A stretch of DNA of 64,000 nucleotides, from NCBI RefSeq assembly GCF_010500245.1, contig NZ_JAAGOX010000032.1, positions 248,001 through 312,000 of the forward strand. Reading direction: 5' to 3'. The position numbers and the translations under genes were made by a program. The notes under the pieces are model-generated. The model saw nothing but the letters and a program-made list of their open reading frames with translations, had not been told where the DNA came from and did not search any database. This document shows, one piece after another, positions 1,932 to 21,966 of the stretch. The number at the start of each line of letters is the position of its first letter. The stretch's first letter is position 1. Source of the stretch: Ruegeria sp. PrR005. GTDB taxonomy: Bacteria > Pseudomonadota > Alphaproteobacteria > Rhodobacterales > Rhodobacteraceae.

Positions 1932-2561
1932 ATGCGCTGGTTGATTCTGTGGGTTCTGAGCGCTGTTTCGGTGTTGGCCGATGGCGAGAAAGCGGGCCAG
2001 TTCGACTATTACGTGCTGTCGCTCAGCTGGTCGCCGAACTGGTGCGAGACCACGGGCGACGCGCGGGGCGAGGACCAGTGTAACCCGCGCCACGATTATG
2101 GCTGGATCCTGCACGGGTTGTGGCCGCAATACCAGTATGGCTGGCCCTCATACTGCCGCACCTCCGAGACGCCGCCCTCGCGCCGGATGACGGCGGAAAT
2201 GGCCGATATTCAGGGCAGTTCGGGCCTTGCCTGGCATCAGTGGAAGAAACACGGCACCTGTAGCGGGCTGAGCGCGCAGAACTACTTCGACCTGTCGCGC
2301 GAGGCCTATGACAGCGTGGTCCGGCCCGAGGTGTTCCGGCGGCTTGACCGGACGGTCCAACTGCCCGCGCGGGTGGTGGAAGAGGCGTTTCTGAAGGCCA
2401 ATCCGAACCTGGAACGCGACATGCTGACGGTGACCTGCAACGGGCGCTATATCGCCGAGGTGCGCATCTGCCTGTCAAACAGCCTGAAACCGGTTCCCTG
2501 TGGCCGCGACGTGGTGCGCGACTGCCGGACCGAGGACGCGCTGTTGCACGCGATTCGCTGA
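1932..2561 (+). CDS. Secreted ribonuclease T2 family protein
   Basis: Endoribonuclease of the RNase T2 family, probably periplasmic. It has 209 residues, with a short hydrophobic N-terminus (residues 1-16, signal-like). Both conserved catalytic boxes are visible: HGLWPQ with His61, and WHQWKKHGTC with His102 and His107. In the second box the residue usually given as the catalytic Glu is Gln103. Paired Cys residues suit the usual disulphides. The ATG at 1932 is chosen because ggaaagag lies just upstream and the signal-like segment follows directly; longer in-frame starts would add a non-signal extension. Its promoter region is shared with divergent trcR. Confidence 0.88.
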   Translation: MRWLILWVLSAVSVLADGEKAGQFDYYVLSLSWSPNWCETTGDARGEDQCNPRHDYGWILHGLWPQYQYGWPSYCRTSETPPSRRMTAEMADIQGSSGLAWHQWKKHGTCSGLSAQNYFDLSREAYDSVVRPEVFRRLDRTVQLPARVVEEAFLKANPNLERDMLTVTCNGRYIAEVRICLSNSLKPVPCGRDVVRDCRTEDALLHAIR

Positions 2562-17976: not shown

Positions 17977-18612
17977 ATGCTCATGTCGGAAAAAGCGCTT
18001 TATGAACCCCTCTCTGCCGGTGACCCGCTGTTTTCGGGCTATCGGTTTCGCACCGGCGATCCCGGCGGTCCGCAGACCGAAGGGCTGGGTCTTGGCCTGG
18101 GCGGCGAAAACGGGCTGCAACCGGGTGATCCAGTTGCGCTCGATCAGCATTATGTGCGCGCGGTGGCCTTTACCCGCGAGGCCAGCGGCAAGGTCAGCTG
18201 GTTTAACAGCCTGTTCAGCGCCCAAGCCAGCGGCAAGTCGGTGGGCGTGTTGCAAGAGGCGAAATCGTTCATGGTGGGGACGGTCGATGGCCAGCAGGTG
18301 GAAATCGGCGTTGCGGTTCTGTTGAAGATCGAGGCCACCAGTTTCAAATCGGAGGCTCAGGTTTCGGTGGCCAATATCGCCGCCGAGGCGCAGCTGGGCC
18401 TGTCGCGGGCCGAGATGGAGATCAGCGTGCGCGGCTATACCGGGGCGCTGGGCGACATGCTGCCCGCGCCCAGCGAAGTCGATCTGACCTCGTACACGAC
18501 CTATCTGAACGCCTTCGAGCGCATTCAGAAACATGTGTTCGGGCCGGGCGGTGCGGCGCAGTATTCGCCCGTTGTTCTGGGCAAGCTGCGGGCCGGTGCC
18601 GGGGGCGATTGA
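17977..18612 (+). CDS. Hypothetical protein
   Basis: The 211-residue soluble protein has no signal peptide or membrane helix. It is rich in Gly and Ala with even beta content. I do not recognise a family or catalytic motif. A weak ribosome site (aagga) precedes ATG 17977; a second ATG two codons later (17983) is equally possible. It stands alone between the FadH-like gene and a convergent monooxygenase-like gene. GC content and codon style match the neighbours, so it does not look recently acquired. Confidence 0.65.
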   Translation: MLMSEKALYEPLSAGDPLFSGYRFRTGDPGGPQTEGLGLGLGGENGLQPGDPVALDQHYVRAVAFTREASGKVSWFNSLFSAQASGKSVGVLQEAKSFMVGTVDGQQVEIGVAVLLKIEATSFKSEAQVSVANIAAEAQLGLSRAEMEISVRGYTGALGDMLPAPSEVDLTSYTTYLNAFERIQKHVFGPGGAAQYSPVVLGKLRAGAGGD

Positions 18613-18671
18613 CCGCCACACGGATTGGGCCGTGCCCCTTGTAGGTTGAAACGCCTGTTGCGCTGGTTGGT

Positions 18672-19016
18672 CTAGCCGTGGCTTGCCCGGCTGTCCTCGG
18701 GGGCCTGATCGCGGTCGGTCATGCCGTAGTCGCGGATCACGCCCGCCACGCGCAGGCGGTAATCGGCGAAGAGCGCCTCTCGCCCGCGGGTCTGGGCGCC
18801 GCGATGGGCGGCAAGCTGGCGCCAGCGGGCGACGGCCTCTTCATCCTCCCAGAACGACAGCGACAAGAGCTTGCCGGGATTGGTGAGGCTCTGGAACCGT
18901 TCGACCGAGATGAAGCCCGGCATATCGTCAAGCAGGGCGCGCATCCGGCCTGCGAGATCGAGATAGGCGCCCTGTTGCCCGGGGGCGGGTTCGACTTCGA
19001 ATATGATGGCGATCAT
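18672..19016 (-). CDS. Antibiotic biosynthesis monooxygenase (ABM) domain protein
   Basis: The 114-residue dimeric alpha-beta barrel protein has the ABM pattern: MIAIIFEVEPAPGQQ, then MPGFISVERF and LLSLSFWEDEEAVARWR. Such proteins act as small monooxygenases or as stress or sensor proteins. ATG 19016 is chosen for its ggaga ribosome site and for matching the start of the fold. It overlaps the upstream NIPSNAP stop by 4 bases, so the two are translated together, and both folds belong to the same superfamily. Confidence 0.85.
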   Translation of the reverse strand: MIAIIFEVEPAPGQQGAYLDLAGRMRALLDDMPGFISVERFQSLTNPGKLLSLSFWEDEEAVARWRQLAAHRGAQTRGREALFADYRLRVAGVIRDYGMTDRDQAPEDSRASHG

Positions 19017-19336
19017 GTCGGCTCTCCATGCGGGGTGGAGACCAGTTTGAGCCATGTGCGGTCCTCGCGCAAAATGAACTTTTCGGACTGGGCCAAGTCG
19101 TAGTTCTGTCGCCCCAGAGGATCGGCGGCAAGGCGGGTTCGATAGGCCTCGTATTCGGCCAGGCTGGGGATGTTGTAGATGCCGTAGGCGAGAGTCGATG
19201 AGCCTTCGTGCGGGGCGTAGTAGCCGATCAGGTCGGCGCCGCAGCGCGGGATCGCCTGTCCCCAGGTGCGGGCGTAGCGTTCGAACTGGGCCCGTTTGGT
19301 CGGGTCGATGTGATAGCGGATGATGCAGGTCAGCAT
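19013..19336 (-). CDS. NIPSNAP family protein
   Basis: The 107-residue dimeric alpha-beta barrel protein begins MLTCIIRYHIDPTKRAQFERYARTW, a NIPSNAP-type pattern. The cellular role of this family in bacteria is unclear. Its Shine-Dalgarno (aaagga) lies inside an 8-bp GC-rich hairpin that ends at the base before the ATG, so translation is probably restrained by RNA structure. It is cotranscribed with the ABM-domain gene downstream. Confidence 0.82.
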   Translation of the reverse strand: MLTCIIRYHIDPTKRAQFERYARTWGQAIPRCGADLIGYYAPHEGSSTLAYGIYNIPSLAEYEAYRTRLAADPLGRQNYDLAQSEKFILREDRTWLKLVSTPHGEPT

Positions 19337-19360
19337 GGGGGTCCTTTCGTCTGGACCCCC
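19337..19360 (-). promoter_or_regulatory. Hairpin burying the NIPSNAP ribosome binding site
   Basis: On the minus strand GGGGGTCC-(agacgaaa)-GGACCCCC is directly followed by ATG at 19336. The GGA of the Shine-Dalgarno pairs in the stem; the preceding AAA is in the loop. The perfect 8-bp stem would mask the ribosome site unless it is melted or displaced. Confidence 0.65.
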
Positions 19361-19414
19361 GTCTTAGGGCAAGGATCGCGGGCGAGGGTTCGCCCGCGGC
19401 CGAAGTCTCGGCCC

Positions 19415-19855
19415 TTACTTCACCTCGATGGTGATCACCTCGGACACGATCGGGGTGCTGTGGGGCACATGGGTATAGTCGCCCATCACCAGTTGCAGCG
19501 TGTGCTTGCCGGGCGCGAGGTCGAGCGTGACCTCGGTCTGGCCCTTGCCGAAATGGCGGTGGTTGTCATCGGCGGGAAGGGCGTATGTCAGCTCTTCGGC
19601 CCCGTCTTCGCCCTGACCCATCGGGGGGCGGTCGACCAGCAGGTGGTGGTGGCCGGTATTCTCGGTCTCGGTCCCGGCGGGAGCGACGCCCATGCCGCTG
19701 AGCCCGAAGATCACCGTGACCGGAGAGGCCACGTTATCGCCATCGGCGAGATTGGCGAAGTAGACGCGCGCCTCGGGGTTGGCGGGAGTATCGCCGCCCG
19801 CCAGGGCGGCGGTTGCCAGAAGGCCGATGCCAAGTGCTGCAAGATAACTTTTCAA
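19415..19855 (-). CDS. DUF4399 exported protein (TTG start)
   Basis: Encodes 146 residues with a signal peptide (residues 1-20, LGIGLLATAALAGGD). The DUF4399 body has the family's HHHLLVD and GKHTLQLVMGDYTHVPH segments, whose His residues could bind metal. No ATG fits the signal peptide; TTG 19853-19855 does, with gaggatc at the right distance upstream. An upstream in-frame ATG would add nearly 50 non-signal residues. Probably periplasmic, with unknown function. Confidence 0.82.
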   Translation of the reverse strand: MKSYLAALGIGLLATAALAGGDTPANPEARVYFANLADGDNVASPVTVIFGLSGMGVAPAGTETENTGHHHLLVDRPPMGQGEDGAEELTYALPADDNHRHFGKGQTEVTLDLAPGKHTLQLVMGDYTHVPHSTPIVSEVITIEVK

Positions 19856-19998
19856 AACCAGATCCTCGTTGTTGGAACACTGGCGGTATCCTATGCGATG
19901 CCGGGCCGGGAATCGAACAGCCATTTCGAACACACGGACTTGTGTAACGGCCAGCAGAGACGCAAGGTCGGGCGCAATGGCCGGGCAGCGGGGCAAGC

Positions 19999-20907
19999 AT
20001 GATCACGACAATCCTGATGGGGCTGGTGCCAAGCTTTCTTATGGTCGGGCTGGGCGGCGCGGTTCGGGACCGGCTGACGCCTGCGGCCTGGCAGGGGCTG
20101 GACAAGCTGAACTTCGAGGTCCTGTTTCCGGCCTTGCTGTTTTTTGCCGCCAGCAACCGGCCGATTGCGGTGCAGGATGTGATCCGTATCGGGCCAGCCG
20201 TCTGGGCGGTGATGGGGCTGGCGCTGATGCTGGGATATCTGGCGCGCCGATTCGGGCCAGAGCGGTTTCTCGATTTTGCCGGGGCCTGGCAGACCACCTG
20301 GAGATTCAACACCGCCATGGCCTTTGTCGCGGTACCAACGCTTTATCTGGCCGATGTCGGCCAGATGGCGGTGGCCATCGGTATGGCGGTTCCGGTGGCC
20401 AATCTGCTGGCGGTCTCGGCGCTGTCGCGGGGTGGCAACCTGACCTTGCGGGCCACGGTGCGAAAGGTTGCGCTTAACCCCTTTCTGCTGGCCTCGGTCG
20501 CCGGGGTGGGTGTGGGTCTGTCGGGCTACAAGATCCCGGACCCGATCCTGGCCCCGGCGCAGATGCTGGCGCAAGCGGCCATTCCGATCGCCCTGCTGTC
20601 GATCGGCGCCACCATGGACTGGCGCGCCCTGACCCGGTTGGACCTGTTCAACGGCTATCTCTGTGCGGTGCGGCTGCTGCTGACCCCGGCGCTGGTCTGG
20701 CTGACTTGCCGGCTGCTGGGGGCCGAGCCCGGTCTGGCTGCGGTGGTGATCCTGTTCGCGGCCTTGCCCACGGCATCGGCGGCGCATGTGCTGGCGTCGG
20801 GCTTTGGCGCTGACCGCAAACTGGTCGCCACGCTGATTGCCCAATCCACCCTGCTGAGCGCCGCGACCCTGCCCCTGTGGATCTATGTGATTGGCCTTAG
20901 TTTCTGA
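19999..20907 (+). CDS. AEC family transporter (auxin efflux carrier type)
   Basis: The 302-residue membrane protein has about ten helices in two inverted bundles, with the broken-helix pattern NFEVLFPALLFFAASNRP in the first half. Bacterial AEC proteins carry malate, malonate or other organic acids. It is divergent from the DUF4399 gene and followed by a LysR regulator gene on the same strand, so regulation by that protein is possible but unproven. Confidence 0.88.
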   Translation: MITTILMGLVPSFLMVGLGGAVRDRLTPAAWQGLDKLNFEVLFPALLFFAASNRPIAVQDVIRIGPAVWAVMGLALMLGYLARRFGPERFLDFAGAWQTTWRFNTAMAFVAVPTLYLADVGQMAVAIGMAVPVANLLAVSALSRGGNLTLRATVRKVALNPFLLASVAGVGVGLSGYKIPDPILAPAQMLAQAAIPIALLSIGATMDWRALTRLDLFNGYLCAVRLLLTPALVWLTCRLLGAEPGLAAVVILFAALPTASAAHVLASGFGADRKLVATLIAQSTLLSAATLPLWIYVIGLSF

Positions 20908-21060: not shown

Positions 21061-21966
21061 ATGGACCGACTGACAGAAATGGAAGCTTTTGCCAACGTCG
21101 TGGACCAGGGCGGCTTCACCGATGCGGCCAAGAAGATGGGAATCTCGAAGTCGGCCGTGTCCAAGCATGTGTCCAGCCTGGAGGCCCGGTTGGGTGCCCG
21201 GCTGCTGAATCGCACGACGCGCCGGGTGTCGCCGACAGAGATCGGGCTTGCCTATTATGATCGGGCCCGCCGGGTGCTGAACGATGCCGGAGAGGCTGAC
21301 GCGCTGGTCACGTCGATGCAATCGGCACCTTCGGGGCTGCTGAGAATCTCGGTCGCAACCGATTTCGGGGTCAATCACCTGTCGCCGGTCTTGTCGGATT
21401 TCCTAGCGGAATTCCCGGACATTACCGTGAACATGGTTCTGAACAACCGGTATGTGGAACTGATTTCCGAAGGGTTCGACATGGCGGTGCGGATCGGTGA
21501 GCTGGAGGACAGCACGCTGCGCGCCCGCAAGTTGACCGAGACCACCAAGCGGATGATCGCCAGCCCGAAGTATTTCGAGAAATATGGCCGCCCGCAGAAG
21601 ATCGACGACCTGAACGAGCACAAGCTCTTGCACTATTCCAGCCAGTCCTCGGGCAACGTGTGGAAACTGACCGCGCCCTCGGGCGAAAAGCGGCAGGTGC
21701 GCACCGCTGGATGGCTGAGCGTGAACGACGGTCAGTCGCTGCTGAATGCTGCGATTTCGGGCTTGGGGATCGCTTATCTGCCCTGTTACCTGTTCGCCGA
21801 GGCGATGGAAAAGGGGCTGGTCGAGGATGCGATGCCGTCGCTGCCCGACGAGGTGCAAGGCATCTATGCCGTCTATCCGCCGGGCCGGTTTACCCAGCCC
21901 AAGGTCCGCGCATTCATCGATTTCCTGGTTCACGCCTTTGACGACAAAGGTCCGATGAACTGGTAA
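21061..21966 (+). CDS. LysR family transcriptional regulator
   Basis: Encodes 301 residues. The N-terminal HTH (MEAFANVVDQGGFTDAAKKM, then GISKSAVSKHVSSLEARLG) is typical of the CrgA/DhcR-like subgroup, followed by a substrate-binding domain (residues 90-295). No divergent target gene is present; the upstream AEC carrier on the same strand is the nearest candidate. A strong terminator follows 35 bases after the stop. Confidence 0.92.
   Translation: MDRLTEMEAFANVVDQGGFTDAAKKMGISKSAVSKHVSSLEARLGARLLNRTTRRVSPTEIGLAYYDRARRVLNDAGEADALVTSMQSAPSGLLRISVATDFGVNHLSPVLSDFLAEFPDITVNMVLNNRYVELISEGFDMAVRIGELEDSTLRARKLTETTKRMIASPKYFEKYGRPQKIDDLNEHKLLHYSSQSSGNVWKLTAPSGEKRQVRTAGWLSVNDGQSLLNAAISGLGIAYLPCYLFAEAMEKGLVEDAMPSLPDEVQGIYAVYPPGRFTQPKVRAFIDFLVHAFDDKGPMNW

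What the first reader, a model, noticed from the sequence alone, without database searches (positions are those of the whole stretch)
19337..19360. Perfect GC hairpin buries the ribosome site of the NIPSNAP-ABM pair
The minus-strand leader ends in GGGGGTCC-agacgaaa-GGACCCCC immediately followed by the ATG. The GGA of the Shine-Dalgarno is in the stem. An 8-bp, mostly G-C stem touching the start codon should strongly block initiation, so the pair may be switched by temperature, a small RNA, a protein or ongoing transcription.
Basis: partly seen in the sequence, partly recalled or inferred. Interest (0 to 1): 0.55.

Follow-up and report, generated by a model that had tools for sequence, protein, structure and literature searches.

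The report
Hairpin hiding a gene's start signal
A strong RNA hairpin covers the ribosome site of a small two-gene operon in a marine bacterium, but the gene's own promoter seems to start inside it, so it probably silences only messages that run in from the gene upstream, a trick known from phage T4.

Summary
The hairpin is real: GGGGGTCC-agacgaaa-GGACCCCC, minus strand, abutting the NIPSNAP ATG. The proposed thermal, sRNA or protein switch is not supported. In 93 of 95 related leaders an operator (TTCG-N8-CGAA) lies 64-82 nt upstream of the ATG. At a fixed distance after it sits a -10-like TA: A in 93 of 93 and 41 of 41 further loci. That places transcription start at the end of the hairpin's 5' arm. 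RNA from the operon's own promoter would lack the stem; only transcripts reading through from the upstream DUF4399 gene would carry it. Computed cost of opening the start region: about 5 kcal/mol (own) versus 13 (read-through).

Same-register stems occur in 11 of 18 loci with DUF4399 upstream, 3 of 104 with a divergent ArsR-type gene, 3 of 11 others. Arm sequences differ between lineages while pairing persists. But only two supported independent contrasts exist, four DUF4399 loci lack the stem, and no start site is mapped. Best reading: a promoter-selective translational insulator, working like the phage T4 I-TevI hairpin. Known principle, apparently new instance.

The parts
19337..19360 (-). 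Hairpin GGGGGUCC-AGACGAAA-GGACCCCC; 3' arm holds GGA of the SD and abuts the AUG
   Evidence: same-register stems in relatives
19342..19348 (-). Shine-Dalgarno GAAAGGA (half in loop, half in stem)
   Evidence: sequence; similar motifs before ATG in many relatives, (by eye)
19352..19356 (-). Predicted transcription start region (operator position 50, i.e. 19354, give or take 2)
   Evidence: inferred from the fixed -10 position; not mapped experimentally
19361..19366 (-). -10 element TAAGAC (T38 A39 relative to the operator start)
   Evidence: A39 93 of 93 and T38 84 of 93; A39 41 of 41 and T38 33 of 41 in further loci (counted by eye from the table)
19389..19404 (-). Operator core TTCG-GCCGCGGG-CGAA of the ancestral ArsR-type regulator (outer bases decayed here)
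   Evidence: pattern in 93 of 95 leaders; logo
19377..19398 (-). Second stem CGCGGGCGA-ACCC-TCGCCCGCG, overlapping the right half of the operator
19013..19336 (-). NIPSNAP-family protein, 107 aa
   Evidence: Pfam PF07978, E 9.4e-26
18672..19016 (-). ABM-domain protein, start overlaps the NIPSNAP stop (ATGA), so probably coupled
   Evidence: Pfam PF03992, E 1.6e-17, (given without its first Met); overlap read
19415..19855 (-). DUF4399 protein, same strand, stop 78 nt upstream of the NIPSNAP ATG: presumed source of read-through
   Evidence: Pfam PF14347, E 6.7e-36; TTG start taken from the alignment with relatives

Best explanation
A promoter-selective translational insulator. The NIPSNAP-ABM operon has its own promoter (operator core at 19389-19404, -10 at 19361-19366) whose start site falls at the end of the hairpin's 5' arm. 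Transcripts begun there have a leader of about 16-18 nt with a free GAAAGGA ribosome site and are translated. Transcripts that run in from DUF4399, 78 nt upstream on the same strand, contain both arms, fold the -17 kcal/mol stem over the ribosome site and are translated poorly; ABM, whose start overlaps the NIPSNAP stop, would follow. Expression is thus kept under the operon's own promoter. Shown from sequence: the hairpin, the conserved operator and TA, the register, the association with DUF4399. Inferred: that TA is the -10, the exact start site, read-through, the block of translation, the benefit.
For: Operator-anchored conservation puts the -10 at a fixed place (A39 93 of 93; 41 of 41), so the 5' arm (positions 44-51) spans promoter -6 to +2. 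Opening the start region costs 4.8 kcal/mol in the predicted own transcript and 13.2 in read-through for the window; medians 5.8 versus 13.1 for 14 stem-group leaders (chosen for the stem, so partly circular) and 4.8 versus 6.6 for 68 ArsR-divergent leaders. Register stems of score 9 or more: 11 of 18 DUF4399-upstream loci, 3 of 104 ArsR-divergent loci, 3 of 11 others; 12 or more: 8 of 18, 0 of 104 and 1 of 11. In 54 loci fetched after the idea was formed, both DUF4399 loci have such a stem, with other sequences (GAGGTTCC/GGGACCTC; CGGGGGCGT/ACGCCCCTG), against 0 of 35 ArsR-divergent loci with an operator match. Two pairs change on both sides (A-U to G-C, U-A to C-G). The loop varies (8, 10, 11, 15) while the 5' arm stays in register. 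Order DUF4399 - convergent ArsR - NIPSNAP in four relatives (L033, L052, L084, L102) suggests that loss of ArsR exposed the operon to read-through. The lack of a conserved -7T fits alphaproteobacterial promoters (PMC8407463, passages seen).
Against: No start site is mapped and no transcript data were available; the window's -35 is not recognisable and a consensus scan found no promoter. Four DUF4399-upstream loci forming one clade (L021, L057, L068, L080) have no stem. DUF4399 context and stem are phylogenetically clustered: only two supported independent contrasts, not significant, and one origin of the stem is not ruled out. Covariation is modest: 2 pairs with changes on both sides, reached by 197 of 500 shuffles, and a one-column slide scores nearly as well (0.233 versus 0.246). 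The outer pair is lost in L013. The loop limit was widened from 14 to 18 after L167 was seen; with the earlier scoring 1 of 2 DUF4399 loci and 2 of 46 ArsR-divergent loci scored 11 or more. L092, L041 and L084 have stems of score 9-11 beside ArsR. L194's stem is reached by 59 of 3000 shuffles.
Confidence: 0.52

Rival explanations
1. By-product: a G-rich promoter discriminator and a C-rich spacer behind the ribosome site happen to be complementary; the stem has no selected role and persists by common descent.
For: Positions 44-47 are G-rich across the family (45-55 of 93 each); perfect 8-bp stems are common in this DNA (38 in the window); few independent contrasts; a one-column slide pairs nearly as well in covariation.
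Against: Pairing includes the UCC/GGA core, not only G-run against C-run; unlike arm sequences pair at the same register in separate loci (L011, L049, L194, L167); the G-rich discriminators of ArsR-divergent loci rarely pair with the ribosome site (3 of 104).
Confidence: 0.27
2. The hairpin is in the operon's normal mRNA and works as a regulated ribosome-site switch (sRNA, protein, temperature or coupling to transcription).
For: Very stable stem touching the AUG; transcription might start further upstream than predicted.
Against: The conserved -10 would start RNA at the end of the 5' arm; the stem keeps -10.7 kcal/mol at 60 C; no Rfam match at E up to 1; most relatives with the same gene lack it.
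Confidence: 0.12
3. The inverted repeat is a DNA operator for a transcription factor (for instance the distant ArsR-type homologue), overlapping about -6 to +18.
For: Half-site spacing N8 equals that of the conserved operator; L163, L172 and L190 carry a second TTCG-N8-CGAA copy overlapping this region (read); the ArsR-type homologue L142 is kept in four genus members and missing in G003, which lost this promoter.
Against: Sequence and spacing of the repeat differ between relatives (loops of 8, 10, 11 and 15), which a dimer would hardly tolerate; the separate operator core is retained upstream; the repeat is not a TTCG-N8-CGAA site; no second exact GGGGTCC-N8-GGACCCC elsewhere in the genome.
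Confidence: 0.07

Closest known systems
Phage T4 I-TevI (and I-TevII, I-TevIII, segB, Aeh1 mobE) translational hairpins; also T4 soc and e
   Same: Stable hairpin sequesters the ribosome site only on long transcripts from upstream promoters; the gene's own promoter is placed so that its transcripts do not include enough sequence to form it (PMC2988022, passages of section 12).
   Different: T4 uses it for timing between early, middle and late transcription, with mapped starts for some; here it is chromosomal, the promoter is bacterial and carries an ArsR-type operator, and nothing is mapped.
IS10/IS50 transposase protection from impinging transcription (recalled; not found in the passages searched)
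   Same: Read-through RNA from outside folds over the transposase start; RNA from the own promoter does not (recalled).
   Different: A transposon's protection; here an ordinary two-gene operon behind a same-strand gene.
RNA thermometers and riboswitches (general knowledge)
   Same: Structured leader covering the ribosome site.
   Different: Too stable to melt at living temperatures, no Rfam match, and the own mRNA probably lacks the structure.

Membership tests
Promoter-selective ribosome-site sequestration (T4 I-TevI type) | Stem covering the SD or start codon in long RNA | tested here: met
   by sequence and predicted fold
Promoter-selective ribosome-site sequestration (T4 I-TevI type) | Own promoter starts inside the hairpin so that short RNA cannot fold it | tested here: inconclusive
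   Conserved -10 predicts it; no mapped 5' end
Promoter-selective ribosome-site sequestration (T4 I-TevI type) | Upstream same-strand transcription running through the gene | not testable with these tools
   DUF4399 on the same strand, 78 nt upstream; no RNA data
Promoter-selective ribosome-site sequestration (T4 I-TevI type) | Loss of the stem raises translation of the long RNA | not testable with these tools
   needs a reporter
RNA thermometer | Stem melts within the growth temperature range | tested here: not met
   predicted -10.7 kcal/mol at 60 C, -3.8 at 85 C
Known Rfam cis-regulator | Covariance-model match | tested here: not met
   0 matches at E up to 1 for 19250-19500
ArsR-type operator dyad | TTCG-N8-CGAA sequence | tested here: not met
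   The 24-bp repeat is GGGGGTCC-N8-GGACCCCC; the TTCG-N8-CGAA core is separate at 19389-19404

The most novel reading that the evidence does not exclude
Loss of the divergent ArsR-type gene left this operon exposed to read-through from DUF4399, more than once, and translation-blocking hairpins then arose at the same promoter register, from unlike sequences, as insulators. Bacterial chromosomes may use start sites placed inside hairpins as a general way to keep an operon deaf to its upstream neighbour.
Probability: 0.33. Interest if true: 0.62.

Novelty: new member of a known kind. Interest (0 to 1): 0.45.

Why it matters
If true, it is a bacterial chromosomal case of a rule described for phage T4: whether an mRNA is translated depends on which promoter made it. 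It would warn against reading operon structure as co-expression, and it gives a simple sequence signature (inverted repeat spanning -6 to +2 and the ribosome site) that can be sought genome-wide wherever start sites are mapped.

Tried and rejected
Thermosensor: rejected on predicted stability. Known RNA family: none. Intrinsic terminator: no T-run follows the stem and the scan found no minus-strand site in 18000-20500. Dispersed repeat: the exact GGGGTCC-N8-GGACCCC occurs at one place in the genome. Strong covariation proof: not obtained. Phylogenetic independence: not obtained. Terminators between DUF4399 and the stem-less leaders (L021, L057, L068, L080): some predicted hairpins but no T-runs seen, so not claimed. 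Distant ArsR-type homologue as trans regulator: suggestive, not proven; its upstream site resembles the window operator only in part, and that script found a start in only 4 of the 13 loci it was given. Literature: NIPSNAP with ArsR (2 papers, both on lung cancer), NIPSNAP with antibiotic biosynthesis monooxygenase (none); hairpin and read-through term searches (listings only, apart from the passages read). They cover only the held open-access library.

Rows dropped: L015 (no start) and 17 duplicate loci before the 95. Of the matches that were not yet held, 54 (62% identity and up, near full length) were fetched; weaker and fragmentary matches were left out. In one search L199 (start mis-assigned) was dropped, leaving 148 loci; 15 of these had no exact operator match and were left out of the counts, leaving 133.

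Full report
Observation. It folds as a clean stem of -17.1 kcal/mol at 37 C. The gene is a NIPSNAP-family protein (PF07978), the next an ABM-domain protein (PF03992) whose ATG overlaps the NIPSNAP stop, and the gene upstream on the same strand is a DUF4399 protein whose stop lies 78 nt before the ATG.

Relatives. The protein has matches in 99 of 394 genomes drawn from the family. From 112 loci (L015 without a start left out) I took 95 unique leaders. In 93 of 95 a TTCG-N8-CGAA palindrome lies upstream, 64 to 82 nt before the ATG. In 69 of 95 a divergent ArsR-type gene lies next to it (Pfam HTH_20 and HTH_5 for the one tested, from L017). Anchored on that palindrome, T19 is 93 of 93, C17 91 of 93, A-4 90 of 93, and 38-39 nt after its start come T (84 of 93) and A (93 of 93). 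These positions were not part of the search pattern. In 54 further loci, 41 with an operator match, A39 is 41 of 41 and T38 33 of 41 (my count from the table). I read this as the -10 element of the NIPSNAP promoter. The absence of a conserved T at -7 is usual in alphaproteobacteria (PMC8407463, passages seen). A -10 for the divergent gene is less likely, because the TA also persists in 14 of 14 stem-group leaders, none of which has an adjacent ArsR gene.

Where RNA starts. With -12 at position 38, +1 falls near position 50, which is 19354 in the window. The 5' arm is positions 44-51, that is promoter -6 to +2. The operon's own RNA would begin at the last bases of the 5' arm and could not form the stem. 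Computed cost of opening about -12 to +3: window 4.8 kcal/mol for the own RNA, 13.2 for RNA from 100 nt upstream. The 14 stem-group leaders have medians 5.8 and 13.1 (chosen for the stem, so partly circular); 68 ArsR-divergent leaders have 4.8 and 6.6.

Association. Of 148 loci (95 plus 53), 133 have an exact operator match. A register-anchored stem of score 9 or more occurs in 11 of 18 DUF4399-upstream loci, 3 of 104 ArsR-divergent loci (L092, L041, L084) and 3 of 11 others (L122, L018, L188); score 12 or more in 8 of 18, 0 of 104 and 1 of 11. The 54 later loci were fetched after the idea was formed. They hold two DUF4399 loci, and both have such stems, of unlike sequence: L194 GAGGTTCC/GGGACCTC and L167 CGGGGGCGT/ACGCCCCTG, against 0 of 35 ArsR-divergent loci with an operator match (one-sided Fisher p 0.0015). 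Caveat: the loop limit was widened from 14 to 18 after L167 was seen; with the earlier scoring the count is 1 of 2 and 2 of 46 at score 11 or more. Per-leader shuffles: window 15 of 3000, L167 2 of 3000, L194 59 of 3000.

Structure or chance. In an alignment of 14 leaders (12 distinct) of the window's genus and the Leisingera group, 86.5% of 96 cells pair, two pairs change on both sides (A-U to G-C; U-A to C-G) and the covariation score is reached by 5 of 500 shuffles; but the count of such pairs is reached by 197 of 500, and sliding the partner by one column gives 0.233 against 0.246. Within the genus the stem is 8, 8, 7 and 8 bp; L013 loses the outer pair. Loop length differs between lineages (8, 10, 11, 15) with the 5' arm fixed in register, which speaks for RNA and against a protein-binding dyad.

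History. In L033, L052, L084 and L102 DUF4399 lies further upstream with the ArsR-type gene between, pointing back at it (a partial DUF4399 match in L041 may be a fifth). The window's arrangement is therefore probably what remains after loss of that gene. Of 16 genomes searched for the ArsR-type protein of L017, two have it next to NIPSNAP (G206, the query's own genome, 100%; G231, 62%); 13 have only a distant homologue of 36-41%; G003 has neither. The distant homologue (L142) is 89-100% identical in four of five genus members and missing from G003, the one member that has also lost the operator, promoter, hairpin and 5' part of NIPSNAP. This is a lead that the homologue controls the operon in trans; it is a single co-loss.

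Against. No start site is mapped. The -35 is not evident and the consensus scan found no promoter. A clade of four DUF4399-upstream loci (L021, L057, L068, L080) has no stem. On the gene tree only two supported independent contrasts exist, too few for significance, and one origin of the stem is not ruled out. L092 has a stem of score 11 beside an ArsR gene.

Mechanism and standing. Best reading: a translational insulator that silences read-through RNA and spares RNA from the operon's own promoter. The same principle is described for phage T4 I-TevI and others (PMC2988022, passages of section 12). I recall similar protection for IS10 and IS50, but the passages read do not state it. Membership is not claimed as proven: the defining internal start and the effect on translation are untested. 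No paper on this operon's leader turned up under the terms used.

Noticed in passing
L015 (G003:C30, same genus as the window): A deletion after the DUF4399 stop has removed operator, promoter, hairpin and about the first two thirds of NIPSNAP while ABM stays open; the same genome lacks the distant ArsR-type homologue kept by the other four genus genomes.
   Followed up: partly
L163, L172, L190 (leaders): A second TTCG-N8-CGAA operator copy overlaps the ribosome-site region, so the regulator may bind twice there.
   Followed up: no
L142, about 2152-2225, minus strand: Upstream of the distant ArsR-type homologue lies TCAGGCCGCGGGCGAA, 14 of 16 like the window operator TTCGGCCGCGGGCGAA; the sister genome (L154) has TCAGATGGCGGGCGAA.
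   Followed up: partly
L113 and L122, upstream of the NIPSNAP start: DUF4399 is not recognised by tblastn at E 1e-3, though its end seems to remain, yet the hairpin is kept (L122 8 bp; L113 with one mismatch).
   Followed up: no
window 21061-21966 (+) and 19999-20907 (+): A regulator that looks LysR-type (MDRLTEMEAFANVVDQ..., label recalled, not searched) and a Mem_trans-family transporter lie near DUF4399; the same regulator type lies near NIPSNAP in relatives (L022, L040; L160, L167, L182).
   Followed up: no
G000 genome, e.g. G000:C4:82326, C35:2902 and C11:353419: A recurring GGGGCGCTGCCCCCCGGACCCC inverted repeat occurs at several places in the genome; possibly a terminator-like or repetitive element.
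   Followed up: no
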